A DNA stretch of 64,000 bases. Origin: Ferrimonas lipolytica. GTDB lineage: Bacteria; Pseudomonadota; Gammaproteobacteria; Enterobacterales; Shewanellaceae. A program made the position numbers and the translations under genes. Numbering within the stretch: the stretch's first letter is position 1; each line of letters opens with the position of its first letter. The notes below the pieces were generated by a model that made no database searches, had not been told where the DNA came from, and was given only the letters and a program-made list of their open reading frames with translations. Shown piece by piece: positions 8,178 to 58,376 of the stretch. The DNA lies in contig NZ_CP051180.1 of NCBI RefSeq assembly GCF_012295575.1, positions 2,728,001 through 2,792,000 on the forward strand, given 5' to 3'.

Positions 8178-8467
8178 GGCTGTGTCACAGTTAAGTGTTG
8201 AGGTTTATATCAAGCCTTCGGCTGTACCGATTGCAGTACTCTTAGGGGTTGCGTCGCAGTGCCGACAGCACATTCTTGTATGCATTAGGGGGGAGCTTCG
8301 CCCGCTTTGGAATCCCCCTTGCCTTAGGTCGCCGTCCAAAACGCTTCGCTGAACTGCTCCAATGCGGCAGAAGATCAATAGCGGTAGTGCTTTACCCTTG
8401 TATCGCGACTCTCCTAGCCAGCGCTTTAACAGCCTTGGAAAGAGCAACACTTAATTGGTACACAGCC
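8178..8467 (+). mobile_element. MITE-like element, copy 1 (full length, 290 bp)
   Basis: The copy opens with GGCTGTGTCACAG and closes with GGTACACAGCC, imperfect inverted repeats of about 23 bp. It contains the family core GCACATTCTTGTATGCATTA followed by a G-run. It is flanked by CTTTTTTT and TTTTTTGT, so the 8-bp target duplication is near but not perfect, possibly blurred by slippage in the T-run. There is no transposase; its short open frames are not conserved as proteins. It is inserted in the U-tract of the nitroreductase terminator. Confidence 0.85.
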
Positions 8468-8784
8468 TTTTTTGTGTCTAAATACATTATCGCTGCCAGA
8501 TTCACCTCTCAACCAGTTTGATTCGGCAGTGCTCTCGCAGGTAGATATAAATGACGCAAATCCTCCATCTCTCTCCGCCAAAACAATTTGATCTTTTTAC
8601 TTCCAAATTCAGTTGATTCATGACAACCAGCATAGTTACAGCCGATAAAACACCACAAATTGACAGCAGCTAGCCGATTCACCCGAATTGATATTGGTGC
8701 GCCCCTTGAATATTAACCAACTGTTAACATACCCGATCATTTTAGTCAGGTATATCAACCAACAGGCATTTGGGGAAGGGAAGC
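8468..8784. other. Promoter region of the RCC1 lipoprotein gene
   Basis: About 317 bp between the MITE end and the next ATG. It is AT-rich with no credible open frame. No strong promoter consensus could be picked by eye. A good ribosome site (GGGAAGGGA) lies just before 8785. Confidence 0.5.
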
Positions 8785-11700
8785 ATGAAAAAACATCTAA
8801 TATACGGAGCATTGATCACTGCTCTTTCTGGTTGTGGTGGAGGTGAGAGCAACGATGACTCAGGAGCGGTCGCGCTCAATCCGAGTCCGACCCCAGACAA
8901 CGCGCCACCAACGTTGATCGGTTCTACTGCCGAACCACAAGGTGATAACTGTGCCAATGGTGGTGAGTGGCTACAGGTTGGGATTGATAGCAATGGTGAC
9001 GGCACCTTAACCGACGGCGAGATCACCGATACCCAACTGATTTGCCACGGTGCCAACGGTCAGGCTGGCCTTAGCGCGCGGTTCAATGTTAGCCAAGAAT
9101 CCACTGGTGAAAACTGCACTAACGGGGGCCAGCGAGTTGAAGTAGGTCTCGACTCAAATAGCGATGCGGTGTTATCAGATGACGAAGTGTTGTCAGTGCT
9201 TTATGTTTGTAACGGTGAACAAGGCTTCACAGGCCAAGACGGTTTTACCGCCTTAGTGGCAACGATTGCCGAGCCTGCAGGCGCTAATTGCGACGCCGGT
9301 GGCACCCGAATTAACTCTGGCCTCGATAGCAACCGCAACAACATCCTTGATGCTGAAGAGATAACTAACACTCAATACATTTGTCACGGTAACGACGGCG
9401 AAGGTGGAAGCGACGGTGATGATGGCCAAGACGGATACTCAGTTGTAACCAATCTAAGTACCGAAGAGCCCGGCGAGCACTGTAGTAACGGTGGCAAACG
9501 CCTCGATATCGGCTTAGACCTGAACCGCAACAACATGCTCGATCTCGAGGAGATCACCAACACCCAATATGTCTGTAATGGCATCGATGCCCCTGCACCA
9601 GTTGATATTACTGTAACAAGCACTGCCGCCAACGAAGATGATACCAGCCTAATATTTACCGTTGCTCTATCTGAAGCACAGGTTGCTCCCCTGAGCATTA
9701 ACTACGGTACCGTAGGGATCACTGCAACGGCCGGCCTAGACTTTACTAGCACTGCGGGTACCTTAGTTTACAGCCCCGGTGAAACCAGCAAAACTGTCGC
9801 AATTGAACTGGCAAGCGACACACTGTTTGAGTGCAACGAAACGGTAATGTTGGCATTGAATAGCAACGGCAGCAGCTACAGCGGCTTTGGACAAATCAAC
9901 GATAACGGCGCCGCTCAATTAGAGGCGCGTATCGATGTAATCGACAACGAAATCGTCGAGAATGACAGCGATGCAACATTTGCCTTAGTGTTTGACCACC
10001 CAGTATGTGAACCAGTAGAGGTTGCATTAGCTTACAGCGGCTCCGCTATCCACGGCGTTGATTTCAATGCAGCAGAAACCGTTGTAATCGCCGCTGCAAC
10101 AGAACGAGTTGAAGTGGCTATCAAGCCAGTTAACGATGCTATTCGTGAGGAGCGAGAAACCATTCAAGTGTCCGCCAGCATCGCTGACACGGGCGTACAC
10201 GCGTTAAACCTAATGGCAGCCGATAATAGTCACTCCAGTGCAACTAGTAGCGCCAGCATCAATTTCAGCGGCGCTGAGATCAGTATAATTCCAACCACTG
10301 CTAAGTTATTTGGTGGCTTTTATGCCAACTGTGTTGTTACCGAAGATAGCTTGGTTAAATGTTGGGGCCATAATGGCGGCTATGCCCTTGGCAACGGCCA
10401 CGATGACGATATCGGCGACGATTTCGGCGAGGCCGAGCTGACCGAATCCTGCAACCAGGATGGGCTGAATGGTTTGATTGAGATAACCCGCTATGAGGTT
10501 GATGACCTCGATAATTGCAGCGGTTATGGTGGCTACGTTATCACCCAAGGCAATGATGACAATGGCAACGGCACACTTGAGGATGATGAACTGGTATCCC
10601 GTGCTATCAATCGTTGTGGTAACAACGTTCCTCCCTACATCGCCTTGGAGCCACAACAGTTCGAAGCCTCTGCTTCTTGTCCAGAGGGCGGCATGTCAAT
10701 TTTTCATGGGAGCGATGACAATCTCGATGGGGTACTTACCACATCAGAGATGGGCAGCGAATTGCTAGCTACTGACATCGGCGACATTGCCGTTATTTCC
10801 ATAGCCGTAGGCGAGTATCAAAGCTGTGCCCTATTTGTCGACAACACCGTTAAATGTTGGGGTAGTAATAGCAACGGAATGCTTGGATTAGGGGTTCCTT
10901 TTGCAGATAACAGCTACATTGGTGACGACCCAGCTGAGCTCGGTAACAATTTGGTTGGCGTCAATTTCGGCACCGGGCGGACCGCAATATCACTTACTGG
11001 TGGCGATGATCACTTCTGTGCCATTTTGGACGATGAAAGCCTCCGCTGCTGGGGCAATGGTAGCGATGGCCGTCTTGGTTATGAAAATAAAGATAGTGTC
11101 GGCGCAACCCCAGATAGCATTGGTGATAGTTGGCCAGCAGTAAACTTCGGCAACGGCAGCGATGGCCAACCATTAACGGTAAAGCAGATCGCAAGTGGTT
11201 ATAACTACAATTGTGCCATTCTCAGTGACGACAGCCTCCGTTGTTGGGGCGACGGCGCCTTCTTCAAATTAGGCTATCAACATACCGACGACATTGGCGA
11301 TGACGTTGGTGAGATGGGCGCCAACCTGCCTGCTATCAATCTTGGCACCGATCTCACCCCACTCCAGATCTACAGCGGCTACGGTACCAACTGTGTGATA
11401 TTTGATGACGGCTCACTAAAATGTTGGGGCAACAATCGTGATGGTCAAGCAGGCCTAGGCCGAGGCGATAGTTTCGTTGGTGATGGCGGCTATGAGAGCA
11501 CTAGCGCGTTATGTCGCGGTAACGAAGCAGTATTTGAAACGCGCACCGTAATGAGTGTGAATAACAGTTGTGAAGTTGAAGGTTTTCGCATCGATTACGG
11601 CTACGATAGCAATGCCGATGGAGCCCTCAGTGCCGATGAATATCAAGGTACATACAACCGCTGCGGCGTTGATGGCGCGCCGGCATTAGGGGCGATTATT

Positions 11701-12219
11701 GAACACCGGCTCGGTTCGAGCGAGTGTAACGGCAATGGTGGTTTCGAATACAATTACGGCTACGATGTGGATGGTGACGACTTACCGACTCCAGAGATGG
11801 GTGACAACCTTCCTTTCGTCCAGTTAGCCAGTTCAGCACCAATCACTAAAATCGCCATGGGTTACTACTCGACCTGTGTGTTGTTTGACGATCACACCCT
11901 CAATTGTTGGGGCGACGGTGACGAAGGTACCACAGGCCTTGATACTGATAACGACTGGAGCGACACCCCTGATGAGCTACCGTCCAATGCCGCGTTACCT
12001 GATTTAGGTGAAGGCCGTTACGCCATCGATATTGCTGGCCGCGGTTACCAGATGTGTGCGTTGCTCGATAACCTCGAGGTAAAATGTTGGGGCTATAGCG
12101 AATACGGTGAAGTCGGGGTTCCACAGCTCTATGACCTCATCATCGGTGACGGGATTAATGAGTTTGGCGATACCGCCATTGAGATGGGCGATAACCTGCC
12201 AGCGGTTGAACTGTATTGA
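8785..12219 (+). CDS. Large lipoprotein: DUF7151-type repeats, Calx-beta domain, seven RCC1 blades
   Basis: From the ATG at 8785 the product has 1144 residues. A lipoprotein signal (LITALSGCGGG) anchors it in a membrane, probably facing the periplasm or cell surface. Four ~60-residue cysteine repeats follow (pattern EPxGxxCxxGG...GLDSNxDGxLxxxEIT...QYICxG), each with an EF-hand-like D-x-N-x-D/N loop likely to bind calcium. Next comes a Calx-beta region (about residues 270-500) and then seven RCC1 motifs of the type C(A/V)(I/L)xDxSLKCWG near residues 523, 690, 755, 819, 880, 1040 and 1100, enough for one full propeller. Extra cysteine/calcium repeats are inserted in the loops after blades 1 and 5. 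Function is unknown; adhesion or ligand binding at the surface is plausible. A terminator follows at once. Confidence 0.88.
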   Translation: MKKHLIYGALITALSGCGGGESNDDSGAVALNPSPTPDNAPPTLIGSTAEPQGDNCANGGEWLQVGIDSNGDGTLTDGEITDTQLICHGANGQAGLSARFNVSQESTGENCTNGGQRVEVGLDSNSDAVLSDDEVLSVLYVCNGEQGFTGQDGFTALVATIAEPAGANCDAGGTRINSGLDSNRNNILDAEEITNTQYICHGNDGEGGSDGDDGQDGYSVVTNLSTEEPGEHCSNGGKRLDIGLDLNRNNMLDLEEITNTQYVCNGIDAPAPVDITVTSTAANEDDTSLIFTVALSEAQVAPLSINYGTVGITATAGLDFTSTAGTLVYSPGETSKTVAIELASDTLFECNETVMLALNSNGSSYSGFGQINDNGAAQLEARIDVIDNEIVENDSDATFALVFDHPVCEPVEVALAYSGSAIHGVDFNAAETVVIAAATERVEVAIKPVNDAIREERETIQVSASIADTGVHALNLMAADNSHSSATSSASINFSGAEISIIPTTAKLFGGFYANCVVTEDSLVKCWGHNGGYALGNGHDDDIGDDFGEAELTESCNQDGLNGLIEITRYEVDDLDNCSGYGGYVITQGNDDNGNGTLEDDELVSRAINRCGNNVPPYIALEPQQFEASASCPEGGMSIFHGSDDNLDGVLTTSEMGSELLATDIGDIAVISIAVGEYQSCALFVDNTVKCWGSNSNGMLGLGVPFADNSYIGDDPAELGNNLVGVNFGTGRTAISLTGGDDHFCAILDDESLRCWGNGSDGRLGYENKDSVGATPDSIGDSWPAVNFGNGSDGQPLTVKQIASGYNYNCAILSDDSLRCWGDGAFFKLGYQHTDDIGDDVGEMGANLPAINLGTDLTPLQIYSGYGTNCVIFDDGSLKCWGNNRDGQAGLGRGDSFVGDGGYESTSALCRGNEAVFETRTVMSVNNSCEVEGFRIDYGYDSNADGALSADEYQGTYNRCGVDGAPALGAIIEHRLGSSECNGNGGFEYNYGYDVDGDDLPTPEMGDNLPFVQLASSAPITKIAMGYYSTCVLFDDHTLNCWGDGDEGTTGLDTDNDWSDTPDELPSNAALPDLGEGRYAIDIAGRGYQMCALLDNLEVKCWGYSEYGEVGVPQLYDLIIGDGINEFGDTAIEMGDNLPAVELY

Positions 12220-12252
12220 GGCGATAACCGATCGCTTGGTTAATGACATATC

Positions 12253-12281
12253 GGCAGTGCTGTGAAGGCACTGCCTTTTTT
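12253..12281 (+). terminator. Terminator of the RCC1 lipoprotein gene
   Basis: GGCAGTGC (12253-12260) pairs perfectly with GCACTGCC (12268-12275), then six T. MITE copy 2 begins two bases after the T-run. Confidence 0.9.
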
Positions 12282-12282
12282 A

Positions 12283-12575
12283 GGCTGTGTCGTAGTTAGC
12301 TGTTGAAGTTTATCTTAAGCCTTCGGCTTCACCGATTTCGGTGCTTTTAGGCGAGGATGTCGCGACGGCGACGGCACATTCTTGTATGCATTAGAGGGGG
12401 GCGCTTCGTCCCCTTTGGAATACCCCTTGCCTTACGTCGCCGTCCAAAACGCTTCGCTGGACTGTTCCAATGCAGCAGAAGATCAACGGCGGTAGTGCTT
12501 TGCCCTTGTATCAACACTCGCCTAGCCGCTGCGTTAACAACCTTGGAATGAATAACACTTAGTTGGTACACAGCC
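12283..12575 (+). mobile_element. MITE-like element, copy 2 (full length, 293 bp)
   Basis: It runs from GGCTGTGTCGTAG to GGTACACAGCC with the family core around 12374-12400. Flanks are CTTTTTTA on the left (the U-tract of the preceding terminator) and TCTTTATT on the right, similar but not identical. Overall it is closely similar to copies 1, 4 and 5. Confidence 0.87.
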
Positions 12576-13006
12576 TCTTTATTGGTTAACTTTTTGCAAA
12601 ATGTTGGCCACATCGGCACGGTCTGGCAAGGGGCAAAGCCTGCTTTAACACGCAATTACGATATCGCCGGTTAAATTATGGCGATACAACTATGCATTAA
12701 TGGCGGCATTTACCATTACGATTATGGTCATGATTGGTGGCTTAGATTGCAGCACCAATACTGCCGCCAGTGCTTGTGGTACCAAGTTAACCTCGATGGC
12801 AATGTTGTGCGGTTGCCACCTCCAGCTTCGCTGCGGTTTACTCCCGCCACTCATTGCTCAGGTCAAACTCTTACTTGGCTTAGCGCATATTGCCGCTAAC
12901 GAACGGGGTGAATCAACTAACGGTACTAACAACGAACACGTATTGCTGCTTTAGAACTCGATCGATAGCTTTAAAGCTTACTCATTCTATGGATCGGGAT
13001 GTACTA
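12576..13006. other. Gap with no convincing gene
   Basis: This 431-bp stretch has two short open frames (12678-12899 and 12700-12954), neither with a ribosome site nor a recognisable product. The second is cysteine-rich and partly hydrophobic and could be a decayed gene. The promoter of the next membrane-protein gene must lie near the right end. Confidence 0.4.
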
Positions 13007-13597
13007 ATGAGTCAGCCTCTACTTGGCCCCGTCAACAAAGCCACGCTATTGAGCAGTTCGCCATGGCTACGCGCCGTGACACTGATTAAATGGCACAACA
13101 AAGTCGGCACACTTGCCTTTACGCTGTTGCTAACAGGATTGCTGTTACCATGGGTTGACGCGGATAAGCTAGCTAACCCGATGATGACGCAAGCTCGGGG
13201 ACAGATGAGTTGGCTGACGCCTTTATGCATGATTGCTGTTATTGGATTAGTCAGCTTTGCAGTTGGTCTTAGCGGTAAGCTGAGCCGTGCAACAGCCTTG
13301 CTATGTAGCGTTATTTTAATCTGCGTGCTGGTTGATACATTACACCATCTACAAGCGCTGGCAGCGCTGTTTGGTGGCAGTGGTCATGGCTCATTGTCAG
13401 CTCGAGAGGTTAGCTATTTAGGGCAACAGATAATCGCTAATCTAAGCTTTGGCGGCTACTGTCTCTGTATCGGTTTTATCATGGTTTTGGGCTGTATCAT
13501 TGCGCCTCGTTATCGCTCCAATAAACTGCTGTTAGCTCAACTCACAGCACCGAACCAAGACCAAGACCAAGACCAAGACCAAGACCAAGATAAATAG
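13007..13597 (+). CDS. Four-helix membrane protein with (QD)n C-terminal tail
   Basis: The 196-residue product has four predicted membrane segments: VGTLAFTLLLTGLLLPWV, LTPLCMIAVIGLVSFAVGL, ATALLCSVILICVLVDTL and FGGYCLCIGFIMVLGCII. Histidine pairs lie between segments 3 and 4. I do not recognise the family. GGGAT seven bases upstream supports the ATG at 13007; further in-frame starts upstream lack a ribosome site. The last codons are a perfect hexanucleotide repeat (13555-13590) that encodes a six-fold Gln-Asp tail. It converges on the porin gene and shares a bidirectional terminator with it. Confidence 0.75.
   Translation: MSQPLLGPVNKATLLSSSPWLRAVTLIKWHNKVGTLAFTLLLTGLLLPWVDADKLANPMMTQARGQMSWLTPLCMIAVIGLVSFAVGLSGKLSRATALLCSVILICVLVDTLHHLQALAALFGGSGHGSLSAREVSYLGQQIIANLSFGGYCLCIGFIMVLGCIIAPRYRSNKLLLAQLTAPNQDQDQDQDQDQDK
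13555..13590 (+). repeat. Hexanucleotide microsatellite (CCAAGA)6 inside a gene
   Basis: Six perfect tandem copies of CCAAGA encode alternating Gln and Asp just before the stop codon. The 6-bp period means copy-number change lengthens or shortens the acidic tail without shifting the frame. Confidence 0.9.
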
Positions 13598-13659
13598 GCT
13601 ATTACAGAGACTGCCACCAACAAGTTTCTGTACTGAGTGAACGATTGGCCATTAACGAA

Positions 13660-13683
13660 AAAATCCGGCTTACGCCGGATTTT
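13660..13683. terminator. Bidirectional terminator between membrane protein and porin
   Basis: AAAATCCGGC (13660-13669) and GCCGGATTTT (13674-13683) form a 10-bp stem with a TTAC loop and T/A-rich flanks on both sides, serving two convergent genes. Confidence 0.85.
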
Positions 13684-13716
13684 ATTATGGTGGAGAGAAA
13701 GGCTGACTAACCGATG

Positions 13717-14730
13717 TTAGAAACGCACCTTCACACCGATACTTACGTTATCTTCACTGTTGGCGAATTTGCCCGCAAAGTTAGTATCAGCGAACGCCTT
13801 AGTCATATCTTCGCCGTACTCAGCAACTTCAGTGTAGAGCGTTAGGTATTTGCTGTGGTGGTACTTAACCGAGGCAATTGCTAAGCCAACTGAATCGATA
13901 TCTTCGACACCAATTTTTTCTTCAAAGGTCTTGTGCTGGTAAGACACACCAAACTCGAACTTATCCATACGGTAAGTCGCTGCGCCAATATAGGTATTTT
14001 CAGCGCCGTTAAAGGACTCATCGGTCACTTCAGCTACTGCTGCTAAGGTTAAATTATCGATGCTGTAATCGGCACCCAAGGCGTAACGCATGTAGGTGTC
14101 ATCAGCGTTACCGTACTTTTCATCGATTCTTAACGCGTTAAACGTAGCGTTAAAGCTGTCGCTGAAGAACAGGATACGACCCATCAATACGTCATCGTCA
14201 GAGCCGTTATTGTCTTTCGGGGTTACAATTGCGGTCTTAGCCTGCAGTTTACCGAAACCCACATCGTACTTTTTACTGATTAAGCAGAAAATATTTTCAG
14301 AGTATTTTGGCTGCTCATAAAGCATTGCCGAATTATAAGCTTCGTTATTATTAGACTCGTGAATATCAATACGCTGATAAATATTCGAATATGATCCGGA
14401 AACCCCGTCACCGGCAAAAATTGCACCGTATTTATTTGCCAGTAGAATGTTGGCCTTCAATATTTCAAAGTCGTCAGCATCGCCGCTGTTGTCGTTATCT
14501 GAGTATTGACCGCCAAGGTCAAACTTAGCAGTTAAACCGTCGTACTTATAAACACCTTTGACGCCTAAGTTAGCTAAGGCAACTTCAGTTTCAAAATCTT
14601 TGTCAGTCTGCCATAACGCTTGAACTTGAACATCACCATATGCTGATGTTTTGAATGGTTCAGCTTCCGCCATTACTGAAGTAGACACTAAGGCGGATAC
14701 AACTGCCAAGCCAATAAAAGAACGTCTCAT
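13717..14730 (-). CDS. Outer-membrane porin (general Gram-negative porin family)
   Basis: The product (337 residues from the chosen start) is a trimeric beta-barrel porin for small hydrophilic solutes. It has a signal peptide (RRSFIGLAVVSALVSTSVMA, cleaved before EAEPF), alternating beta-strand segments, a signature near the N-terminus (SAYGDVQVQALWQ) and a terminal aromatic (VSIGVKVRF) as required for barrel assembly. ATG 14730 has AGGGA about nine bases upstream; ATG 14736 is also possible, and a more distant start at 14790 would put 20 residues in front of the signal. It lies just beyond the terminator of the assT-dsbI-dsbL operon and may admit sulfate esters, which is inference. Confidence 0.85.
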   Translation of the reverse strand: MRRSFIGLAVVSALVSTSVMAEAEPFKTSAYGDVQVQALWQTDKDFETEVALANLGVKGVYKYDGLTAKFDLGGQYSDNDNSGDADDFEILKANILLANKYGAIFAGDGVSGSYSNIYQRIDIHESNNNEAYNSAMLYEQPKYSENIFCLISKKYDVGFGKLQAKTAIVTPKDNNGSDDDVLMGRILFFSDSFNATFNALRIDEKYGNADDTYMRYALGADYSIDNLTLAAVAEVTDESFNGAENTYIGAATYRMDKFEFGVSYQHKTFEEKIGVEDIDSVGLAIASVKYHHSKYLTLYTEVAEYGEDMTKAFADTNFAGKFANSEDNVSIGVKVRF

Positions 14731-14851
14731 AATCATTATCCCTGATAAAAACACTTTATATTTAACGGTTACAAATGTAGCGCTAAACAATGCCGATTAG
14801 ATATACAAAAAAAAACGAGTAATAAAAAACAAGAAATACAAAACAAGAAAA

Positions 14852-14886
14852 GGGGAAAGACAGTAATAATAATTCTGTCTTTCCCC
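14852..14886 (-). terminator. Terminator of the dsbL-dsbI-assT operon
   Basis: GGGGAAAGACAG (14852-14863) pairs with CTGTCTTTCCCC (14875-14886), a perfect 12-bp stem. On the minus strand it is followed by TTTTCTTGTTTT. Confidence 0.85.
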
Positions 14887-14895
14887 TAATTATGA

Positions 14896-16653: not shown

Positions 16654-16686
16654 AATAAGGTCCTATTTTTTTAAGTTTGATAATGC

Positions 16687-17295: not shown

Positions 17296-17305
17296 GAGAT
17301 AGGCC

Positions 17306-28542: not shown

Positions 28543-28787
28543 AAAGGCTTCCCCTAATCCTGCGCCTATCGATACTATCGCTACCCGAGCCCCTTTCCTG
28601 ACGGTAAAGTTAAGCTCTGTCGCAGCGGCAGCAATCCATCTTGTTGAGCGATTGTGTTCACAATAGGGAAAGAACTCAAGTGAAGAGTCACAGGTGAGTG
28701 AGAACATTTGAAGCCATCACCGCTTAACTCCACCGTTGTGCATGAGTTGATAAGGGTTAACGCTGTTGAACCTAAGCGATAAAAAAA

Positions 28788-29067
28788 GCTGTGTCGTAGT
28801 TAAGTGTTGAGGTTTATATCAAGCCTTCGGCTCTGCCGATTTCGGTGTTTTTAGGGGACGATGTCGCGGTGGCGACGGCACATTCTTGTATGCATTAGGG
28901 GGGAGCTTCGCCCCTTTACCTCAGGTCGCAGCCCAAAACGTTTCGCTGGACTGCCCCAATGGGCCAGAAGAACAATATGGTAGTAGTGCGTTACCCCTTG
29001 TCTCGGGACTCGCCTAACCGGTGCATTAACAGCATTGGAAAGAACAACACTTAGTTGCTACGCAGCC
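28788..29067 (+). mobile_element. MITE-like element, copy 4, with perfect 8-bp target duplication
   Basis: The 280-bp copy runs from GCTGTGTCGTAG (first G lost or read as A) to GCTACGCAGCC. It is flanked by TAAAAAAA at 28780-28787 and again at 29068-29075, a perfect 8-bp direct repeat. The right repeat is the U-tract (minus strand TTTTTTTA) of the pepP terminator. The insertion splits the usual pepP-ubiH operon. Confidence 0.9.
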
Positions 29068-29073
29068 TAAAAA

Positions 29074-29103
29074 AAGCGAAACCGCATCGCTGCGGTTTCG
29101 CTT
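29074..29103 (-). terminator. Terminator of pepP
   Basis: AAGCGAAACCGCA and TGCGGTTTCGCTT form a perfect 13-bp stem. On the minus strand it runs into TTTTTTTA, duplicated by the MITE insertion. Confidence 0.88.
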
Positions 29104-31556: not shown

Positions 31557-31741
31557 GGCTCCCTGAAGTGTTCGCCAGCGAATAACGTCCCTGGCCGATG
31601 CTTTTACCCCCAGGGTGTTCGTAAGGTGCGGCTGCGCATGCTCGGTACGTCCGAGAAGCCGAAAGCATCAAATGGACACCCGCCTTGAATTTTCGGATTC
31701 GAGGGCAACCCTTCGCAGCGGCACCGCGGGGAGCTCTTAAC
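31557..31741 (+). ncRNA. ssrS: 6S RNA
   Basis: 6S RNA binds the sigma-70 RNA polymerase holoenzyme and mimics an open promoter. The diagnostic block GCATGCTCGGTACGTCCGAG is present at about 31636-31655, almost the E. coli sequence. GGCTCCC near the 5' end and GGGAGCTC near the 3' end give the closing stem, and arms around GTGTTCG and ACACCC-type segments lie between. Position after zapA is the conserved location. Ends are estimated to within a few bases. Confidence 0.93.
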
Positions 31742-36442: not shown

Positions 36443-36731
36443 GACCGTGTACCAACTAAGTGTTGCTCTTACCAATACAGTTAAAGCACCGGAAAGGCGA
36501 GTGTTGATACAAGGGGAAAGCACTACCACCGTTGATCTTCTGCCGCATTGGAGCAATCCAGCGAAGCGTTTTGGACGGCGACCTAAGGCAAGGGGATTCC
36601 AAAGGGGGCGGAGCTCCCTCCTAATGCATACAAGAATGTGCCGTCGCCACCGCGACACCCTTCCCTAAAGCACCGACATCGGTGAAGCCGAAGGCTTAAG
36701 ATAAACTTCAACAGCTAACTACGACACAGCC
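36443..36731 (-). mobile_element. MITE-like element, copy 5 (full length, 289 bp, reverse)
   Basis: Read on the minus strand it starts GGCTGTGTCGTAG and ends with the degenerate right repeat GGTACACGGTC. The family core lies at about 36624-36643. Flanks are ACAAAAAA and CCCCAAAA, not a clean duplication. It sits directly behind the terminator of yihD (minus strand) and upstream of the DUF2797 gene. Confidence 0.85.
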
Positions 36732-36737
36732 CCCCAA

Positions 36738-36762
36738 AAGCGCACCTTAAGAGTGCGCATTT
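36738..36762 (-). terminator. Terminator of yihD
   Basis: GCGCAC (36740-36745) and GTGCGC (36753-36758) with an inner CTTAAG make a hairpin. The minus-strand reading ends in TTTT before running into the MITE. Confidence 0.6.
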
Positions 36763-49622: not shown

Positions 49623-49628
49623 CGATCT

Positions 49629-50486
49629 ATGCAAACCGTAACCGATCCCGCTCGTCTTCATCAGTTGGTATTGCAGTGGCGAGAACAGGGCTTTCGTGTC
49701 GCCTTTGTGCCGACCATGGGCAATCTGCATCAAGGCCACATCGAGTTAGTTAATCAGGCACGCCAGCGAGCTGATAAGGTGGTCAGCAGCATCTTTGTCA
49801 ATCCCATGCAATTTGGCCAAGGGGAAGACCTTGATGCCTACCCACGCACACTGGATGACGATAAGAACAAACTCTATGACGCCAGCTGTGATCTGTTGTT
49901 CACCCCTGAGGTGGAACTGCTTTACCCTGCTGGTATAGGCAGCCAAACCTACATTGAAGTACCGGCAATATCCGACCTACACTGCGGGAACAGCCGTCCC
50001 GGTCACTTTCGAGGGGTAGCGACTGTCGTGGCCAAGTTGTTTAACTTGGTCCAACCGGATATCGCTCTATTCGGTAATAAAGACTACCAGCAATTGGCGG
50101 TGATCCGCGCCATGGTGCGAGATCTCAATATGCCGGTGCAGATTGTTGGGGTTGATACGGTGCGCGACGACGATGGCTTAGCCAAAAGTTCACGCAACGG
50201 TTACCTGACCGATGAACAGCGCACTATTGCGCCTAAATTAAAACAGGTGATCGATGCCACTGCGACCGCCATTCACAGCGACGGTTTAGCCCAGCGAGAG
50301 CAGTTACAACAGCAAGCGCTGCATTCACTGAATGCCTATGCCTTTGTGCCCGATTATTTCGAGATCTGTCATGCAGATACCTTACAACCTGCGCAAGTTG
50401 GTGATAATCAAATCGTTATTCTTGCAGCGGCACAACTTGGGAAGGCCCGCCTAATCGATAATTTGCGGCTGGATCTGAGCAAATGA
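49629..50486 (+). CDS. panC: Pantothenate synthetase
   Basis: PanC joins pantoate and beta-alanine with ATP. The 285-residue protein has [12 protein letters not shown] (HIGH-like), the [21 protein letters not shown] block, FGNKDYQQL and the KMSKS-like LAKSSRN. It forms an operon with panB and, 65 bp further, panD. Confidence 0.96.
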
Positions 50487-50550
50487 TCTGCTAATATGTC
50501 GCGTCAACAAGATTGTTACATGTGTTCAACGTTTGTTCGTGGAGTATCGA

Positions 50551-50931
50551 ATGCAACGAATAATGCTAAAAGGGAAATTGCATCAAGCTCGCGTAACTCA
50601 TGCCGAGCTTGAATACGAGGGTTCTTGTGCTATCGATCAAGATTTGCTGGATGCAGCAGGGATCTTGGCGTTTGAAAAGATCGAGATCTATAACATCGAC
50701 AATGGTGAACGTTTCAGCACCTATGCTATTAGCGGGGAGCGCGGCTCCAAGATGATCTCCGTCAACGGCGCGGCGGCCCATAAAGCAAGCCCAGGCCATC
50801 GTGTCATTATCTGTGCCTATATGACCATGAATGAAGCCGACGCCAAGGTACACCAGCCTAGCTTGGTATACTGCGACGCGAATAACAGCATTAAGGGTAC
50901 CGGCAACGGTATCCCCACCCAAGCCGCTTAA
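50551..50931 (+). CDS. panD: Aspartate 1-decarboxylase
   Basis: PanD supplies beta-alanine for PanC. The 126-residue proenzyme self-cleaves between Gly24 and Ser25 in YEGSC to form the pyruvoyl group. GGAG seven bases upstream fixes the ATG at 50551 rather than 50533. The catalytic block [10 protein letters not shown] is present. Confidence 0.96.
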
Positions 50932-50952
50932 CTGCCCTTGGGGATGCAACTA

Positions 50953-50976
50953 ACGGACGCTGCGGCGTCCGTTTTT
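50953..50976 (+). terminator. Terminator of panBCD
   Basis: ACGGACGC and GCGTCCGT enclose TGCG and are followed by TTTTT. Confidence 0.9.
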
Positions 50977-51206
50977 GATCCTTGCTGATTAATTATACTC
51001 TAGCGGCGTTAACTCGATTAGCAAGGTAACAAACACCCAGCGGTAACTTCAGCTAATGGGATAACGCCTTGCCTATTCAGCTGAAGCGATAGCAGCCAAG
51101 GTCAAGATTGCAGTGATAGCTGCTCTCCTACCAGCTCCGAGCAATGCACTATAAGGCGGGTCGATTCACACTCGTGCGGCTAGGATGTAACTGAATGATG
51201 GCTCAA

Positions 51207-53957
51207 CTAATGTGGGCTAAGCATTGCTGCAAGCAACTGTTGGGCCTGCTCAAAATCGTAATTTTTTAGCAGATCATAGGCTTTTCGTAAGGCTTGCCGT
51301 TGCTCGTGCGCTAATTGAAACTGCTCTAATTGCTCTAGCAGGTCCGGCGCAGCGGAATCAAACTGTTCACAACATTCAATAATCTCAATCAGTCTGTGTT
51401 CTAACTCTGCGTGAGCGAGAGGTTGCTTAGCGGACTTGTCCTCAGGCGCGGTTGCTACATTAACCTGATGCAGCTGCTGCAGTAGCCGTTCGATGCTTGG
51501 CTTGAATTGTGCCAGCTGCACTTCAACATCGGACTGTTGCTGTTCACAAGCAAGCTCCAGAGCCTGTGCTGGCGCTACAAGTCCGTTCGCACCGATAGTA
51601 GCTAACAACCCCTTTATAGTGTGTGCTAATCGCATACAGGTGACAAAATCTTGCTGTGCAAAAGCATCATCAAACTGGCTAACAAACTGCGATTGAGATT
51701 CACAAAACTGCAGTAATAATTTGCGATAGAGTTTTGGGTTTTGTTCGGTATTGATTAGTCCGATATCACTATCAATCAAACTCACGTTAGCCAGTTGCGA
51801 AACCAAGTTATCAGCCAAGTTGTCGCTTTCAGTCAACTGCTGCTTTGGCAGCCCAGTTGGGGCTGCTGGTACGATCCACTTAGCCATAGTGGCAAACATA
51901 TCTTCAACCCGAATCGGCTTGCCAATATGATCGTTCATCCCAGCTTCGAGCACCCGCTTTCGGTCTGAAGTCATTACATTGGCAGTCATAGCAATAATTG
52001 GCATGGAAGCGAATGATTCATTCAACGCACGGATTCGTTTGGTTGCCTCGAAACCGTCCATCAGCGGCATCTGGCAGTCCATAAGGACCCCATCGAACGA
52101 TTCAGACTCAATGCACTTAATCGCCTCGACACCGTTTTCAGCAACGACGACTGTTATCCCGTTTGCAGTAAGAAACTCTATTGCTAATTCCTGATTAAAG
52201 GCATTGTCCTCAACCAGTAGCAAATGGGCTCCAGCCAGTTTCTGCACGTTAGCGCTGAAGCTTTCGCATTTGATCGTCTTACGATCTTGGCGACGATGCT
52301 GTTGTTCTAGCCCAAACACTTCCATCACGGTGTCGTATAGCGATGATGCCGAGACCGGCTTGCTAAGCACGCCGTTAAGTAGTTGCGGACTGCCCGCGTG
52401 CTCCTTAACGTCGCTGAGGCTAGCGGCGGTGAGCATGACTATCGGTAACGGTCCTAACACCTTAAGCGCCTTGGCGGTTGCAACGCCATCAAGACCCGGC
52501 ATTCTCCAGTCAACAAAGGCTAAATCAAACGGCTGCTGCGCCTGTTTCATCGCCTCTATAGCCCGCTGACCTGAGGTAACCGATGTCACCTCAAAACCAA
52601 AGGACTCAAGCATCATCGATAGGATCTGGTTGGCGATAAAGTTGTCGTCGACGATCAACACTCGCAAGTCATCCAGCTCGGCAGGCTTAATCAGTATTGG
52701 TTGGCGCTGCTGCTGTTCATGATCGATCGCCAGCTCAGCATTAAATTTGAAGGTACTGCCTTGTCCTTGCTGGCTGCTGACAGAGATCTCACCGCCCATC
52801 ATATCGACCAATCTCTTCGATATTGATAACCCCAGACCGGTACCACCGTATTTGCGCGTGGTTGACGTATCGGCCTGCGAGAACGACTGAAACAGCTTCG
52901 CTTGCTGCTCGGCGCTCATGCCAATACCCGAATCTTCAACCGAAAAGCTAAGCTGAGCGGTATCACTGCCGCTGTTGGGGCATCTAACCCGCACCACCAC
53001 ATGCCCCTGCTCGGTGAACTTAACCGCATTATTAGCGAGATTGATCAGAACCTGCCCCAGCCGCAACGGATCACCGATCAGGCTTTGTGGCACCTCTGGA
53101 GCAATATCAAACAGGAACTCTAGATCCTTCTCTTCCGCTTTTAGGCTAATCAAATTACCTAAGTTAGCCATCACACTATCAAGCTGAAACGGAATCTTTT
53201 CCAAGGTTAGCTTACCGGCTTCAATCTTTGAAAAATCAAGGATATCGTTGATGATCCCCAGCAATGATTCAGCAGATAAGTTGACCTTCTCAATGTAATT
53301 GCGTTGTTTGCCTTCCAACTCAGTTTGCAGCACCAAATGCGACATACCAATGATGGCATTCATTGGTGTACGAATCTCATGGCTCATGTTAGCCAAAAAA
53401 TCACTTTTCGCTTTATTGGCCGCATCTGCTTCGATCATCGCCTGTTGGAGTTCGCCCGTTCGCTGCTCCACCTCAACCGCCAATTGTTGCGATTGGGTTT
53501 GCAACGACTCATTCTTGAGTTCGAGCTCAGAAAGCAGCTCTTGGCGGCTCTTATGATTGAATAAATCGTGGATTTTGTCTCGATTCAGTTCGAACGCCTG
53601 CGACTGAGTGGCGGTCAACCCAATGGCCAACTGGAGCTGTTGCAGATCACCTACAGGATGCTGAATAACCTGAGCAAACAAGGAGTTGGCATTACTTGGC
53701 AAACGAAGTGGATTACTGGAACCAATTGATAGCCACAACTTGGCGGCCACCGGAGTTTGTTGATGAGTGATAGACAGCGTAACCGGCTCATTTAAACGGT
53801 CGTAGTTGGCTGATTTCAGCAGTGATGACAACTGGCTGACCACCCGAGTTAGGTAGATACTTTGCAATCCGCACAACAACCCAACACGGTGGAACTTGCT
53901 GCGAACACTGTAGATTGCATCAAAGTTATAGATTGTGAGTTTAGCAACGGTATTCAT
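51207..53957 (-). CDS. Soluble hybrid sensor histidine kinase of the stressosome operon
   Basis: The 916-residue protein has no membrane segment. Domains in order: an N-terminal domain (~7-115) that resembles an RsbT-type ATPase fold without its N-box; a coiled coil (~140-180); HisKA with His193 ([10 protein letters not shown]); HATPase ([25 protein letters not shown]); receiver 1 (Asp483 in VDWRMPG); receiver 2 (Asp627 in [10 protein letters not shown]); Hpt (His779 in AHTIKG); and a helical C-terminal tail. It begins one base after the rsbX stop, so it belongs to the operon. In Vibrio vulnificus the stressosome operon is also followed by a histidine kinase, together with a diguanylate-cyclase response regulator. 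No separate response regulator is encoded here. Confidence 0.93.
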
Positions 53958-53958
53958 A

Positions 53959-54549
53959 TCAGTATCGATAGACTAAGCAGGAGGCATCGTCATGCTCCTT
54001 AGCAAAGTGCGCAAAGATATAGTCCACAAAGTCCTCCGGATTTAAGCGCTTACAACTCTCATCAAACTGGGTAAAGAAACGGGATTGAATGCCATCGCTG
54101 TGCATCACAATACAGTCTCCTGCTAGCAAGGCTTGCTGTTCGCTGGTAATCCGCCGCAAATTGTAACCAACGCTGCCATCAGAGCTATGAAAGCTATGAT
54201 CTTTGTGCCCTAAAAGATAGGCAGAAACATTGCCCACGCCAGCAAAGGTAAGGCTGTTATTAATAGTATCGATCACAACGATAGAAACTGCTGCACCAAT
54301 ACTTGGCATGGTTAATTGATGCAGCTCTTGGATCATTTGTTGCGGCGCCTCGATGCCGCTCCGTCGTTCAAGATAGTCAGCCATCTCCACAGACAACCGG
54401 TGAGCATCCCAGCCATGACCAGCGCCATCAATGATAGCCAATAGTTGCCAATGCTCATGCTCAAAACAAACAATGGCATCGCCACTGACAGCTTCATCAA
54501 GGAAAGGTCGATTGCGTATACTGCATCGCATTATATTCTCTAACACCAA
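53959..54549 (-). CDS. rsbX: RsbX-like PP2C-type serine phosphatase
   Basis: The 196-residue protein is a small SpoIIE/PP2C-type phosphatase that resets the stressosome by dephosphorylating RsbR and RsbS. Metal-binding aspartates are in [22 protein letters not shown] and HDDASCLV. The ATG lies within the end of rsbT (10-bp overlap). An alternative start at the internal MRCSIRNR (six residues in) is possible. Confidence 0.88.
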
Positions 54550-54953
54550 GACCTCACTGTTACTCGCGTACCTTGGGATGAGGATTTAATATTAAACTCA
54601 TCTACCAATCGTCGGGTGCCCGGTAAACCTTGTCCAAGGGTGCCACCGGAGCTGAAATGCTCCTGCATCGCTTGTTCTATGTTGGCAATGCCGTTGCCAA
54701 AATCGATGGCTTCGACCTGAATCCCCGTTCGATTCAAATAATTCAGTGGGGTTAATTCGAGCCAACCGTTACCGGCATATTTAATAATATTGCGAGCGAG
54801 CTCTGAGACCGCGGTAAGGAATTTAGCGCTCTGCACTGAATCAAAGCCTTGCTGTTGAAGCATACGCTTTACCTCCAGTAAGGCTCCCTGAAAGCTGGCT
54901 TCATCGGAGACCGGGTGACTTTCACTTATAGTATGTAACCCGCTCTCAGCCAT
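54540..54953 (-). CDS. rsbT: RsbT-like serine kinase / switch protein
   Basis: The 137-residue GHKL ATPase has the N-box SELARNIIKYAGNG, G1 DFGNGI and G2 TLGQGLPGTRRLVDEF. In known stressosomes RsbT phosphorylates RsbR and RsbS and then leaves to activate a downstream partner. It overlaps rsbS by 8 bp and rsbX by 10 bp. The N-terminus carries about 15 extra residues compared with Bacillus RsbT. Confidence 0.9.
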   Translation of the reverse strand: MAESGLHTISESHPVSDEASFQGALLEVKRMLQQQGFDSVQSAKFLTAVSELARNIIKYAGNGWLELTPLNYLNRTGIQVEAIDFGNGIANIEQAMQEHFSSGGTLGQGLPGTRRLVDEFNIKSSSQGTRVTVRSWC

Positions 54954-55305
54954 GACAGGACAACTCTAAGCCGTGTTCAATATTACGCGCGAACATAAAT
55001 GCTGAAGTGTCCAAGTCGAAATCCACGATGGTTGCAGCCAACCCAGGGTTAAGTCCAACCAAGATGGTGTTTACGCCCATCAGTGAAGCCATCTTGAAGA
55101 TATTACTTAACGCCTCAAACTCCTCAATATCAATGATATCTATGCCCGAAAGATCACATAGTAGGTAGTCCAGTTGCAGTTCAGTTAGGCGCAGTAATAG
55201 CTGCTGCTGAAAGCGGGCTAAAACCTCATCAGTAAGAGTGGATTGCACCGTAGCAATTAGCCGCCTCTCAATCTTATTTAAGACAATAGAACTTTCATTC
55301 GACAT
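54946..55305 (-). CDS. rsbS: RsbS-like STAS scaffold protein
   Basis: The 119-residue single STAS domain has the phosphorylation loop CDLSGIDIID, with Ser53 at the position of Bacillus RsbS Ser59. It should form the stressosome core with RsbR and hold RsbT. It starts 5 bases after the rsbR stop. Confidence 0.9.
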   Translation of the reverse strand: MSNESSIVLNKIERRLIATVQSTLTDEVLARFQQQLLLRLTELQLDYLLCDLSGIDIIDIEEFEALSNIFKMASLMGVNTILVGLNPGLAATIVDFDLDTSAFMFARNIEHGLELSCHG

Positions 55306-55310
55306 TGAGC

Positions 55311-56183
55311 TTACTCGCCAACGATCTTCAAGCCGATCTGGGTCAATGATGTGGCTAAGGCATCGCTTAAGGTTGCTGTGGTGGTTAAGCTGCCTACCTC
55401 AATCCCCAACTCGACAATCGTTTGTGCTATTGCAGGCGAGAGCCCAGAAACGATGCAGCTGCAACCCATAAGTTTAGATGCCTTGGTGATCTTGATGATG
55501 TGATTGGCGACCGCGGTATCGACCACAGCAACACCACTAATGTCGAGAATGATCACCTTCGAACGCGTATTACCAATCTTAGCTAATACGGTATGCATTA
55601 GATCTTGAGCACGTTTGGAATCGAGAATACCAACGATTGGTAACATTAATACGCCGTCCCAGATTGAGGTAACCGGTGTCGACATCTCGATCAAAGAACG
55701 GCTTTGCTGTTCAATCTTTTGCTGGGTAACCGTTGAGTAGGCCTCAACAACCACAGCGGTTTCAAGGTGCACTAACTTGGTGAGGGCAATTTGTTGAAGA
55801 TGAAAACGCTCGGCCGCCTGGTCATTATCCAGTGCCCCCTGAAAGAAACTCAGACTTTTACTCACCCCAGCAAAATAGGTCGAAAGACTAAGTCCAATTT
55901 TGGCGTGGGAACTGCCAAGGGTTTCGCGGCTGTTGATATATTCATCGTTTACTTCAGCCAAAAATACCTGATGCCAATGCTTGCGCTGGGCAGCTTTAAC
56001 TCGCTCTAAGCGACGTGGGTCTGCAAAATATTGACGAAATTCTGGCAGGGGAGACAGCCAACGATAAAACTCATCAACATAGTCATCTAACAAGGGAATA
56101 GCACGTTGGCCAAGTTCGCGAATAAGGCCTATATCCGCAGAGGTAATCTCATAGGTATCGAGAAGATTGTCGACCTTCGACAT
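55311..56183 (-). CDS. rsbR: RsbR-like globin-coupled STAS sensor
   Basis: The 290-residue protein has an N-terminal globin-coupled-sensor domain (~10-155) and a C-terminal STAS domain (~175-285). In the globin part, LGSSHAKIGLSLSTYFAG places His93 where haem-binding globin sensors carry the proximal ligand, so it probably binds haem and senses oxygen or NO. The STAS loop LDISGVAVVDTAVA has Ser216 at the main phosphorylation site. It is the first gene of rsbR-rsbS-rsbT-rsbX-kinase, with AAGGAG before the ATG. A MITE copy lies 184 bp upstream of the start. Confidence 0.92.
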   Translation of the reverse strand: MSKVDNLLDTYEITSADIGLIRELGQRAIPLLDDYVDEFYRWLSPLPEFRQYFADPRRLERVKAAQRKHWHQVFLAEVNDEYINSRETLGSSHAKIGLSLSTYFAGVSKSLSFFQGALDNDQAAERFHLQQIALTKLVHLETAVVVEAYSTVTQQKIEQQSRSLIEMSTPVTSIWDGVLMLPIVGILDSKRAQDLMHTVLAKIGNTRSKVIILDISGVAVVDTAVANHIIKITKASKLMGCSCIVSGLSPAIAQTIVELGIEVGSLTTTATLSDALATSLTQIGLKIVGE

Positions 56184-56366
56184 TAGTCACTCCTTAACAT
56201 ACAACTGGGCAGCCACGACCATTAACATCACAACCGACATTCAATAACATACATCATACGCCTTAAGTATAATGAGTACATAGCTAGGCCGTATTGTCGC
56301 TGCCATTTAAGCGATATTATCAATTCCATAAATCAACAGAGTTATTGTCGTTACAACTTAAATTAT

Positions 56367-56576
56367 GTCTGTGTATCAATTAAGTATTGTTGTTCTTTCC
56401 AATACAGTTAAAGCACTGGCTAGGCGAGCGCCGACACAAGGGGTTAAGCAATGCCGCCGTTGACCTAATGCATACAAGAATGTGCCGTGCCACCGCAACC
56501 ATCCTCCCTCAAAAGCGCCGAAATCAGAGAAGCCAAAGGCTTAAGATAAACTTCAACAACTGACTACGACACAGCC
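56367..56576 (-). mobile_element. MITE-like element, copy 7 (internally deleted, perfect 8-bp target duplication)
   Basis: In reverse orientation it runs from GTCTGTGTATCAATTAAG to CTACGACACAGCC with about 80 bp of the interior missing. TAAATTAT occurs immediately on both sides (56359-56366 and 56577-56584), a perfect 8-bp direct repeat. It lies between the zincin-like gene and rsbR. Confidence 0.88.
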
Positions 56577-56635
56577 TAAATTATGGCACGTGACTATTGA
56601 ATCTTACCGACAGGATTTAGCCCCAACCACCTAGC

Positions 56636-57439
56636 TTATCGTGATAGCGCTTGCCCCAACGGAGTGAAATAACCGTGCAGTGCGGTGTGGATGCGAGTTA
56701 GGTGCGCGACGTCAGGAAAGCCTCCCTGCTGCGCCAATTCTGTTGCTTTGGTACCACTAACCAAATATTGATTCTTGATGCGACTATCTTGTTGCAGCGT
56801 CGCTTCGAACGCCCGTGCCATCATCTCGGTAGGGAGGCTGAAATAACGACGACCAATGCGCTTATCCAGCGCAACCGAACGACTGACGAAGTCGTGCTTA
56901 GTCTGCCCATCTTCACTCAGCAAGGTGGTCGCAAACAATTGCTGCAAGCGACCGTTAAGAGGATGTGCTGTGGGCGTACGTTCAGTTAACCAAAGGTCAC
57001 TGGCGAAGCTACGCATGATGGAATCGTCGCTGTGACGGGGGTAAAGTCGAAAGGCAATATAGTGGTCAAACGCATGCCACCACTCGTGGGCGAGCGCACC
57101 GGCACCGGCATTTTTAGCTAACGCTAAGGTGTTGCTGGCTGGGGCGTAGTGCGCCTGTGCAAGTGGCGAACCGCCCTGGCCAAAAGCCAAGCTAAGGCTC
57201 TGCCGGAGTCCCATCACCTGCGGCGGTACATTCAATAAAAACGCTAAGTCTGCCAAGGCATCAAACACCAAGTTGGCTGCCAAGCGTTTTTCTTGGTTAT
57301 CAACCCAGCGACCAACGGTAATGCCCGCTAAACCAAACTGGCTTTTGATATCAGCAAAATCAACCTGCTCATCAAATCGATAGTCCGGCCCTTGCCGGTA
57401 GAACTGGCGTTGAATGCCGCTGTTACTGCTCAAGCCCAT
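56636..57439 (-). CDS. Solitary LPD1/CLCA_X-like zincin protein
   Basis: The 267-residue protein has HEWWHAFDHY near residue 117, an HExxH zinc-peptidase motif, embedded in ALADLAFLLNVP...SLAFGQGGSPLAQAHY...NAGAGALAHEW. This is the pattern of the LPD1 domain usually found in large polyvalent phage and plasmid proteins. A later MARAFEA helix could supply the third ligand. No signal peptide is seen. The function is unknown. The ATG lies inside the end of the GNAT gene (17-bp overlap), suggesting cotranscription. Confidence 0.8.
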   Translation of the reverse strand: MGLSSNSGIQRQFYRQGPDYRFDEQVDFADIKSQFGLAGITVGRWVDNQEKRLAANLVFDALADLAFLLNVPPQVMGLRQSLSLAFGQGGSPLAQAHYAPASNTLALAKNAGAGALAHEWWHAFDHYIAFRLYPRHSDDSIMRSFASDLWLTERTPTAHPLNGRLQQLFATTLLSEDGQTKHDFVSRSVALDKRIGRRYFSLPTEMMARAFEATLQQDSRIKNQYLVSGTKATELAQQGGFPDVAHLTRIHTALHGYFTPLGQALSR

Positions 57440-57920
57440 GCCACTCTAATTTTTGATCTTTTAAGCCGCGATCTGGGCACACCATTCTCTTGGTAATCAC
57501 AAAGCCAAGCTTCAGCAACACCTTGGTGGAAGCGATATTATCTTCGTACACTAGCGCAGTTAACGGCTCATTAGGAAACCATTGTTGCGCCCGCTCAAAG
57601 GTCGCTTGAGCCAAATGATGACCAAACCCTTTGCCCCAAAAGCGGCGTAGCATCATATAACCGATCTCCGCTTCGCCGGACTCACCACGGTACATTACCG
57701 CGATGCCAATACTGCCATGTTCCGGATGCACCGCCATCAGTTTTTGAAACTTAGGCAGCGGCTCAAAATCGGCAAGCAATTTGTGCAGGTTTTGTTCAAT
57801 CGCCTGGGTCGATTTCGGCTCCGGAGAACCAGTATAGAACATCGCCTCAGCGTCAGTTTCCAATTCAATCAGAGTGGTTAAGTCAGTCTCGCGCAAGGGG
57901 CGTAGCGTCAGTATGGTCAT
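57423..57920 (-). CDS. GNAT-family N-acetyltransferase
   Basis: The 165-residue protein has the RimJ/RimL-like order TLRPLRETDLTTL, IGYMMLRRFWGKGFGHHLAQA (acetyl-CoA loop, with GKGFGH replacing the classical Q/RxxGxG/A) and YEDNIASTKVLLKLGF. The substrate is unknown. It is translated just ahead of the zincin-like protein. Confidence 0.9.
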   Translation of the reverse strand: MTILTLRPLRETDLTTLIELETDAEAMFYTGSPEPKSTQAIEQNLHKLLADFEPLPKFQKLMAVHPEHGSIGIAVMYRGESGEAEIGYMMLRRFWGKGFGHHLAQATFERAQQWFPNEPLTALVYEDNIASTKVLLKLGFVITKRMVCPDRGLKDQKLEWHGLEQ

Positions 57921-58107
57921 GATCTATTTTGATGGTTAGCATGCAGTCTATCGACCTTACCGAGCAACCCTATAAAAAGCCACTGCAGCCACGTTTGCTG
58001 GTGACGAACTGGCCCCACAAAAGTTGGGGCGTGGTTAGCTATTGCCGATTTAAGCCAACGTGGTGGCAACGGTCGCCACAGGGGTAAGCTTCGCCCCCCT
58101 TTACTGT

Positions 58108-58376
58108 GGCTGTGTCGCAGTTAACTGTTGAGGTTTATATCTAGCCTTCGGCTCTACCGATGTCGCAGTGGCGACGGCACATTCTTGTACGCATTAGGGG
58201 GGGCTCCGCCCCTTTGGAATCCCCCTTGTCTTAGGTCGCAGTCCAAAACGCTGGGCTGGGCTGGATAGCTCCAATGCGGCGCAAGATCATAGGCCGTCAT
58301 GCTTGTTATTTGTGTCTATATCTACCTAACCGCTGCATTAACGATATTAGAAATAACAATTATCTGGTGCACTGCC
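58108..58376 (+). mobile_element. MITE-like element, copy 8 (269 bp)
   Basis: Runs from GGCTGTGTCGCAG to the degenerate right end GGTGCACTGCC. The core GCACATTCTTGTACGCATTA carries one change from the family. Flanks TTTACTGT and TAAAAAGG do not match. The end of the left flank (58085-58100) resembles internal MITE sequence (AAGCTTCGCCCCCC), a hint of nested or recombined copies. Confidence 0.8.

What the first reader, a model, noticed from the sequence alone, without database searches (positions are those of the whole stretch)
8178..58376. Undescribed ~290-bp MITE-like family: eight copies in 64 kb
The copies lie at 8178, 12283, 21065, 28788, 36443 (reverse), 42923 (reverse fragment), 56367 (reverse, deleted) and 58108. 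Full copies share ends GGCTGTGT...ACACAGCC extending to imperfect ~23-bp inverted repeats (about 18 of 23 matching), and a core GCACATTCTTGTATGCATTA followed by six or more G. Two copies have perfect 8-bp AT-rich flanking duplications. None encodes a transposase. At this density the genome would carry several hundred copies if the window is typical. I cannot name the parent IS; 8-bp duplications occur in families such as IS1595, ISL3 and IS6.
Basis: partly seen in the sequence, partly recalled or inferred. Interest (0 to 1): 0.85.

Follow-up and report, generated by a model that had tools for sequence, protein, structure and literature searches.

The report
Jumping DNA repeat that targets terminators
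A short piece of DNA without genes has copied itself roughly 300 times around a marine bacterium's chromosome, probably using the enzyme of a now-decayed relative (an IS1595-type transposon), and it sits unusually often exactly at the "stop" signals that end genes, where it probably does little harm.

Summary
The host is a single-contig 4.13-Mb Ferrimonas chromosome. A 0.86-Mb sample (21%) holds 62 insertions, so about 300 per genome, 1.9% of the DNA. It is a MITE: of 118 complete copies, 43 have a perfect 8-bp target duplication and 92 at least 6 of 8, against 0.4% and 11% in shuffles. New here: 40 of 92 insertions sit in the T-tract of an intrinsic terminator, against 12 expected for equally T-rich intergenic sites, maximum 23 in 5000 simulations. 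IS1595 relatives in F. futtsuensis, Telluria/Massilia and two other genomes do the same; more distant ones do not. Copies also inserted into each other at an internal TTTGGAAT site. New member of a known kind, with a possibly undescribed target preference.

The parts
8178..8467 (+). MITE copy 1, complete, 290 bp
8144..8177 (+). intrinsic terminator (stem 8144-8170 with one bulged base, T-tract 8171-8177) abutted by copy 1
   Evidence: read by eye; not scored by the strict rule because of the bulge
12283..12575 (+). MITE copy 2, complete, 293 bp
12253..12282 (+). intrinsic terminator (GGCAGTGC..GGCACTGCC + TTTTTTA) abutted by copy 2
   Evidence: read by eye; the two flanks match at 4 of 8, so this copy is not among the 92 scored
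21065..21290 (+). MITE copy 3, right end lost
28787..29067 (+). MITE copy 4, complete with small internal deletion
29068..29101 (-). terminator on the minus strand (stem 29076-29101, T-tract 29068-29075) abutting copy 4
   Evidence: row 'window'
36443..36731 (-). MITE copy 5, complete
36732..36758 (-). terminator-like stem (36740-36758) with a mutated T-tract (36732-36739) abutting copy 5
   Evidence: read by eye; flanks match at 5 of 8, so not among the 92 scored
42923..42996 (-). MITE copy 6, right-end fragment
56367..56576 (-). MITE copy 7, internally deleted, perfect duplication TAAATTAT at 56359-56366 and 56577-56584
58108..58376 (+). MITE copy 8, diverged

Best explanation
The repeat is a non-autonomous transposon (MITE) that was moved in trans by an IS1595-family DDE transposase acting on its imperfect ~24-bp terminal inverted repeats. 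Each insertion duplicated an 8-bp AT-rich target bounded by G/C. The transposase lineage favours the T-tract that directly follows the stem of an intrinsic terminator. Because 8 bp are duplicated, the terminator keeps a T-tract next to its stem, so such insertions should be nearly harmless and the element could build up to about 300 copies. No intact IS1595 transposase was found in this genome and no two of 118 compared copies are closer than 97.3%, so the family now looks immobile. Shown: inverted repeats, 8-bp duplications, copy number, decayed IS with like ends, terminator enrichment, nested insertions. Inferred: mobilisation in trans by this IS, targeting rather than survival as the cause of the enrichment, preserved termination, present inactivity.
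For: TSD: 43 of 118 complete copies perfect, 92 of 118 at least 6/8; shuffled 0.43% and 10.6%. Lengths of 6, 7, 9 or 10 bp give at most 6 of 63 perfect, against 26 of 63 at 8 bp. Parent: decayed 1029-bp IS1595 copy in the same genome, ends 20-21 of 24 identical to the MITE left end, flanks TATTAAAA/TATTAAAG; intact 1023-bp IS in F. futtsuensis, ends 19 and 22 of 24, flanks CAAAAAAG/CAAAAAAG. Its transposase matches NCBIfam transpos_IS1595 at 185 bits (cut-off 75). Terminators: 40 of 92 v 12.0 expected, maximum 23 of 5000 simulations; under a second stem rule the stem end lies within 1 nt of the duplication start in 40 of 46 stem calls, searched from -6 to +5. Nested insertions at TTTGGAAT or a one- or two-base variant in L075, L076, L097 and L113. 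Gene context: divergent gaps 5 of 59 against 103 of 401 gaps of 30 bp or more; convergent 19 of 59 against 81 of 401.
Against: The MITE shares only its ends with the IS, so descent by internal deletion is not shown. The MITE right end matches the IS ends less well, 16-17 of 24, and the 19-22 of 24 for the left end uses the better-matching of two left-end subfamilies. Copies with a perfect duplication are no closer to the consensus than those with 6-7 of 8 (both 0.907). 26 of 118 copies have 5 or fewer matching flank bases. The decayed IS in this genome is not itself at a terminator. No live transposase is left here to act, and no sister-strain empty site was tested.
Confidence: 0.92

Rival explanations
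1. The repeat is chiefly a host regulatory or RNA element (like a REP element or an untranslated-region structure), kept for its hairpins, and the duplications are incidental.
For: Copy 1 folds better as RNA than shuffles (z -2.8 and -2.0 on the two strands). The centre (consensus 81-200) is better conserved (0.93-0.96) than the sub-terminal parts (0.84-0.90). Copies are almost all intergenic, 1 of 62 regions lying wholly inside an ORF of 110 aa or more.
Against: 0 of 65 predicted pairs show a change on both sides among 32 copies. Orientation is free relative to tandem genes (19 same, 16 opposite) and to terminators (24 v 22). 12 of 13 other genomes of the genus have no match to the consensus. 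No Rfam family reaches its gathering score on the window copies.
Confidence: 0.06
2. The terminator excess is survivorship, not targeting: the transposase only needs AT-rich 8-mers, and insertions behind a terminator are the ones that selection tolerates.
For: Divergent (promoter) gaps are depleted, so selection does act. AT-rich 8-mers are a requirement in any case. In GC-rich hosts T-runs are often terminators anyway (G169 control 0.26-0.44 for 6-7 T).
Against: Controls were intergenic and matched for T-richness: 40 observed, 12 expected. The duplication starts within 1 nt of the stem in 40 of 46 stem calls. The IS relatives in F. futtsuensis (2 of 2, by eye), Telluria/Massilia (7 of 7), G169 (5 of 5) and G155 (1 of 1) do it too, whereas 14 of 14 other IS1595-family copies with clear ends do not.
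Confidence: 0.2
3. The MITE was moved by a transposase of another family with 8-bp duplications (ISL3, IS6, IS256).
For: The MITE right end matches the IS1595 ends only at 16-17 of 24.
Against: The left end matches an IS1595 end at up to 22 of 24, with the same duplication length and the same target type. Other families were not searched for in this genome.
Confidence: 0.04

Closest known systems
IS1595-family MITE of H. walsbyi (partner ISHwa6; 165 bp, 7 copies, 25-bp IR, 8-bp DR; PMC3852290, table row seen among passages)
   Same: Non-autonomous, IS1595-family partner, 25-bp inverted repeats, 8-bp duplications.
   Different: 7 copies against about 300 here; terminator targeting is not mentioned in the passages seen.
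ERIC elements and Correia elements (review PMC10969869, passages seen)
   Same: High-copy MITEs; 711 ERIC copies reported in Photorhabdus luminescens and more than 120 Correia copies in Neisseria gonorrhoeae. So about 300 is high but not a record.
   Different: Other ends and other target sites (recalled); the match to IS1595 ends was found for this family only.
ISApl4, an IS1595-family IS (PMC12561309, passages and the first rows of its Table 1 seen)
   Same: A/T-rich 8-bp duplications, several of the sites seen being in non-coding regions.
   Different: Autonomous, 712 bp, 14-bp IR; terminators are not discussed in the passages seen.
IS1595 family in a survey of IS neighbourhoods (PMC9208149, passages seen)
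   Same: Reports IS1595 over-represented between genes of the same direction and suggests a silent role there.
   Different: The passages seen do not say that IS1595 inserts at terminators; here convergent gaps are also favoured.
Group IIC introns and Tn7 (recalled; no call)
   Same: Use intrinsic terminators, or sites just behind a gene, as safe landing places.
   Different: Different enzymes and mechanisms.

Membership tests
MITE (miniature inverted-repeat transposable element) | Short, no transposase gene, terminal inverted repeats | tested here: met
   About 291 bp; GGCTGTGT..ACACAGCC extending to imperfect ~23-bp repeats; alignments; no ORF of 100 aa within a window copy
MITE (miniature inverted-repeat transposable element) | Target-site duplication of fixed length | tested here: met
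   8 bp; 43 of 118 perfect v 0.4% in shuffles; other lengths far lower
MITE (miniature inverted-repeat transposable element) | Ends match an autonomous IS | tested here: met
   19-22 of 24 for the left end (better subfamily), 16-17 of 24 for the right
MITE (miniature inverted-repeat transposable element) | Mobilisation observed, or empty orthologous sites | tested here: inconclusive
   Uninterrupted copies are the empty state of the nested insertions; no sister strain compared
IS1595 family (parent) | Transposase of the IS1595 family with N-terminal zinc-binding domain | tested here: met
   F. futtsuensis protein: NF033547 185.4 bits, NF050000 zinc-binding 45.5 bits; decayed relatives in this genome
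IS1595 family (parent) | Usually 8-bp duplications (stated for the family in PMC8101967; that paper states GG ends for the related Merlin elements) | tested here: met
   GGCTGTGT ends; CAAAAAAG/CAAAAAAG and TATTAAAA/TATTAAAG
IS1595 family (parent) | Named ISfinder subgroup (ISPna2, ISSod11, ...) | not testable with these tools
   ISfinder sequences not held

The most novel reading that the evidence does not exclude
A clade of IS1595-family transposases, in Ferrimonas, other Alteromonadales and Oxalobacteraceae, recognises intrinsic terminators themselves (stem/T-tract junction) and duplicates the T-tract, so that each insertion leaves a working terminator behind. This gene-sparing target choice allowed a MITE to reach about 300 copies. 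A sister lineage (G036) instead uses a CTGT-N8-ACAG-like palindromic target.
Probability: 0.5. Interest if true: 0.65.

Novelty: new member of a known kind. Interest (0 to 1): 0.5.

Why it matters
It names the parent family of a very abundant MITE and offers a testable reason for its success: insertion at terminators with duplication of the T-tract should spare both the upstream gene and its termination. If the transposase really reads the stem/T-tract junction, it would be a small transposase with a built-in safe-site preference, of interest for IS target choice and for harmless integration tools. With about 300 diverged copies and only decayed relatives of the parent left, the genome is also a good case for studying how MITE families die.

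Tried and rejected
RNA function: Rfam gave only 6S RNA at 31557-31736 and nothing on the repeats at gathering scores; consensus folding gave no covariation. Plasmid and phage collections: no match. The exact 20-base core has no match in genome contigs or viral contigs. These tools warn that the window's own genome may be left out. No similarity between MITE and IS beyond the ends.

My note 1 called G010 'probably F. senticii'.

How the terminator test was made: the rule (stem of 6 or more pairs with 4 or more G-C, at most one mismatch, ending within 2 nt of the duplication, 5 or more T) misses bulged stems such as window copy 1, and also L193; these were not added to the counts. The 118 copies come from the 864-kb sample, the best blast matches and the places listed for the core pattern, so they lean towards well-conserved copies; none was chosen by its flanks. 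Dropped: copies without both ends, copies closer than 50 bp to a stretch end, duplicates, and for the terminator test the 26 of 118 with fewer than 6 matching flank bases. Control sites had to have 7 or more A/T and a G/C within 2 nt on both sides; observed sites were not so filtered.

IS test: 34 loci gave 25 with at least 7 of 8 flank matches and IR at least 14 of 22 (12 terminators). Nine loci, three of them the same places as loci, gave 2 (L194 yes, L210 no). The others had fewer matches or unresolved ends and were dropped. G+C-rich hosts make this test weaker: expected 1.84 of 5 in G169, and the Telluria control is only the flanks of the same loci. The F. futtsuensis result is by eye, on contig ends that I paired through their shared 10-base overlaps.

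Papers: ten searches listed no description of this Ferrimonas family or of terminator targeting by IS1595. This is an open-licence library, seen as listings plus passages of seven papers; no paper was read whole.

On checking, I corrected against the calls: the number of relatives (59, not 60), the flank match of the outer copies in L075 and L076, the loci that show the core-less subfamily, and the list of fetching calls.
Full report
Observation. blastn with copy 1 finds all eight copies in the window. The alignment shows common ends and the stated core. A 291-position profile finds them again, and the reversed sequence gives no hit. In the whole single-contig genome (4,133,133 bp) the core with up to two mismatches occurs 229 times, 0 in the control. 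In 40 spaced 20-kb stretches plus the window (864 kb, 21% of the genome) there are 62 insert regions, pieces within 130 bp merged, covering 1.9% of the DNA; this scales to about 297 per genome.

Host. The species is not shown; F. lipolytica fits from memory only. One search covered 60 genomes, the host and 59 relatives from genus to order. One of the 59 has matches: an unnamed Ferrimonas, G010 (12 of the 13 other genomes of the genus have none). In G010 the centre is conserved, and one complete 291-bp element (L033:1409-1699) has ends of the same type and flanks TAATTACT/TAATTATT. The family therefore exists in more than one Ferrimonas species.

Transposition. In 118 complete copies the 8 bp on either side match perfectly in 43 and at 6 or more positions in 92; shuffled pairs give 0.43% and 10.6%. 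The signal is at 8 bp and much weaker at 6, 7, 9 or 10. The target is an AT-rich 8-mer, with G or C favoured two bases outside it on both sides. Copies inserted into other copies at the internal site CCCC-TTTGGAAT-CCCC: L076 keeps the left half of the outer copy up to TTTGGAAT, then a whole inner copy; L097 has a whole copy followed directly by TTTGGAATCCCCC and the right half of another; L075 has the same with TTTTTAAT, and L113 has the right half three times in tandem, each behind TTTGCAAT. The outer flanks agree only loosely: ATTTCTAT/ATTTTATA in L075 is 4 of 8 ungapped and TTTTTTAT/TTTTTATG in L076 is 5 of 8, both better with one gap; L097 is unresolved. The uninterrupted copies are the empty state of these sites. 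The missing halves are best explained by later recombination between the nested copies (inference).

Parent. PF12762, NF033547 and the F. futtsuensis protein find IS1595 transposases at two places in the genome, both decayed: about 3,637,573-3,638,520 (nine stops when read through in one frame) and pieces near 3,351,122-3,351,479. The first still has both ends: 1029 bp, GGCTGTGTCTTAATTAGCTGTTGC...ACACAGCC, flanks TATTAAAA/TATTAAAG, not at a terminator. F. futtsuensis holds an intact IS, 1023 bp, with a 315-aa transposase that matches the NCBIfam IS1595 model. The left end of the better-matching MITE subfamily agrees with IS ends at 19-22 of 24 positions, the right end at 16-17; beyond the ends there is no similarity. 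Mean identity between the 118 copies is 85%, the closest pair is 97.3%, so no recent burst is visible.

Terminators. Among 92 copies with at least 6 of 8 duplicated bases, 40 duplications are the T-tract of an intrinsic-terminator-like hairpin. Intergenic sites of equal T-richness predict 12.0, and 5000 simulations reach at most 23. Among copies with a perfect duplication it is 13 of 43. Under a second stem rule, the stem ends within one base of the duplication in 40 of 46 stem calls, with both MITE orientations (24 and 22). In the window, copies 1, 2, 4 and 5 all abut such a hairpin (copy 4 by rule; copies 1, 2 and 5 by eye); copy 7 does not. The duplication leaves 8 bp of T-tract next to the stem, so termination should survive (inference).

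Relatives of the IS. Both F. futtsuensis insertions lie at a terminator T-tract with duplication CTTTTTTG/CAAAAAAG (by eye, contig ends paired by their overlaps). Of 27 further IS1595-family copies with clear ends, 13 are at terminators: Telluria/Massilia 7 of 7, G169 5 of 5, G155 1 of 1. The other 14 are not: nine G036 copies plus L051, L062, L210, L230 and L232. On the tree the F. futtsuensis, G155 and G169 proteins fall together (92/96), but one group that also takes in Telluria/Massilia has weak support (56/69), and the tree program warns of long branches. G+C-rich hosts make chance hits likelier: 1.84 of 5 expected in G169, product probability 0.006.

Context. Insertions avoid divergent gaps (5 of 59, against 103 of 401 background gaps of 30 bp or more) and favour convergent ones (19 of 59 against 81 of 401; 3 of 62 regions lay at stretch ends and were left out), as expected if insertions near promoters are lost.

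Verdict. An ordinary mechanism at high copy number: a new MITE family of the IS1595 type. The terminator preference is well supported in this genome and likely in its IS relatives. Whether it is targeting by the transposase or survivorship needs an unselected insertion assay.

Noticed in passing
L233-L241 (G036): Nine copies of a more distant IS1595 element have perfect 8-bp duplications; 5 of 9 lie exactly inside CTGT-N8-ACAG and the others are close to it: a different target rule in the same family.
   Followed up: partly
window 31557-31736: 6S RNA (SsrS), 100 bits.
   Followed up: no
L113:451-1450 (G000:C1:1028150-1029149): The right half of the MITE (about 164 bp) is repeated three times in tandem, apparently grown from a nested insertion.
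   Followed up: partly
window 58051-58107: The left flank of copy 8 resembles the MITE's own internal hairpin (AAGCTTCGCCCCCC-TTTACTGT), so copy 8 may be nested in a decayed copy.
   Followed up: no
L093:16976-17226 and L076:297-522: Copies that lack the CATTCTTGTATGCATTA core and have CCCAAAG instead, as in G010; this may be the older form.
   Followed up: partly
L034 and L035 (G010): G010 carries further interspersed and tandem repeats around its MITE relatives.
   Followed up: no
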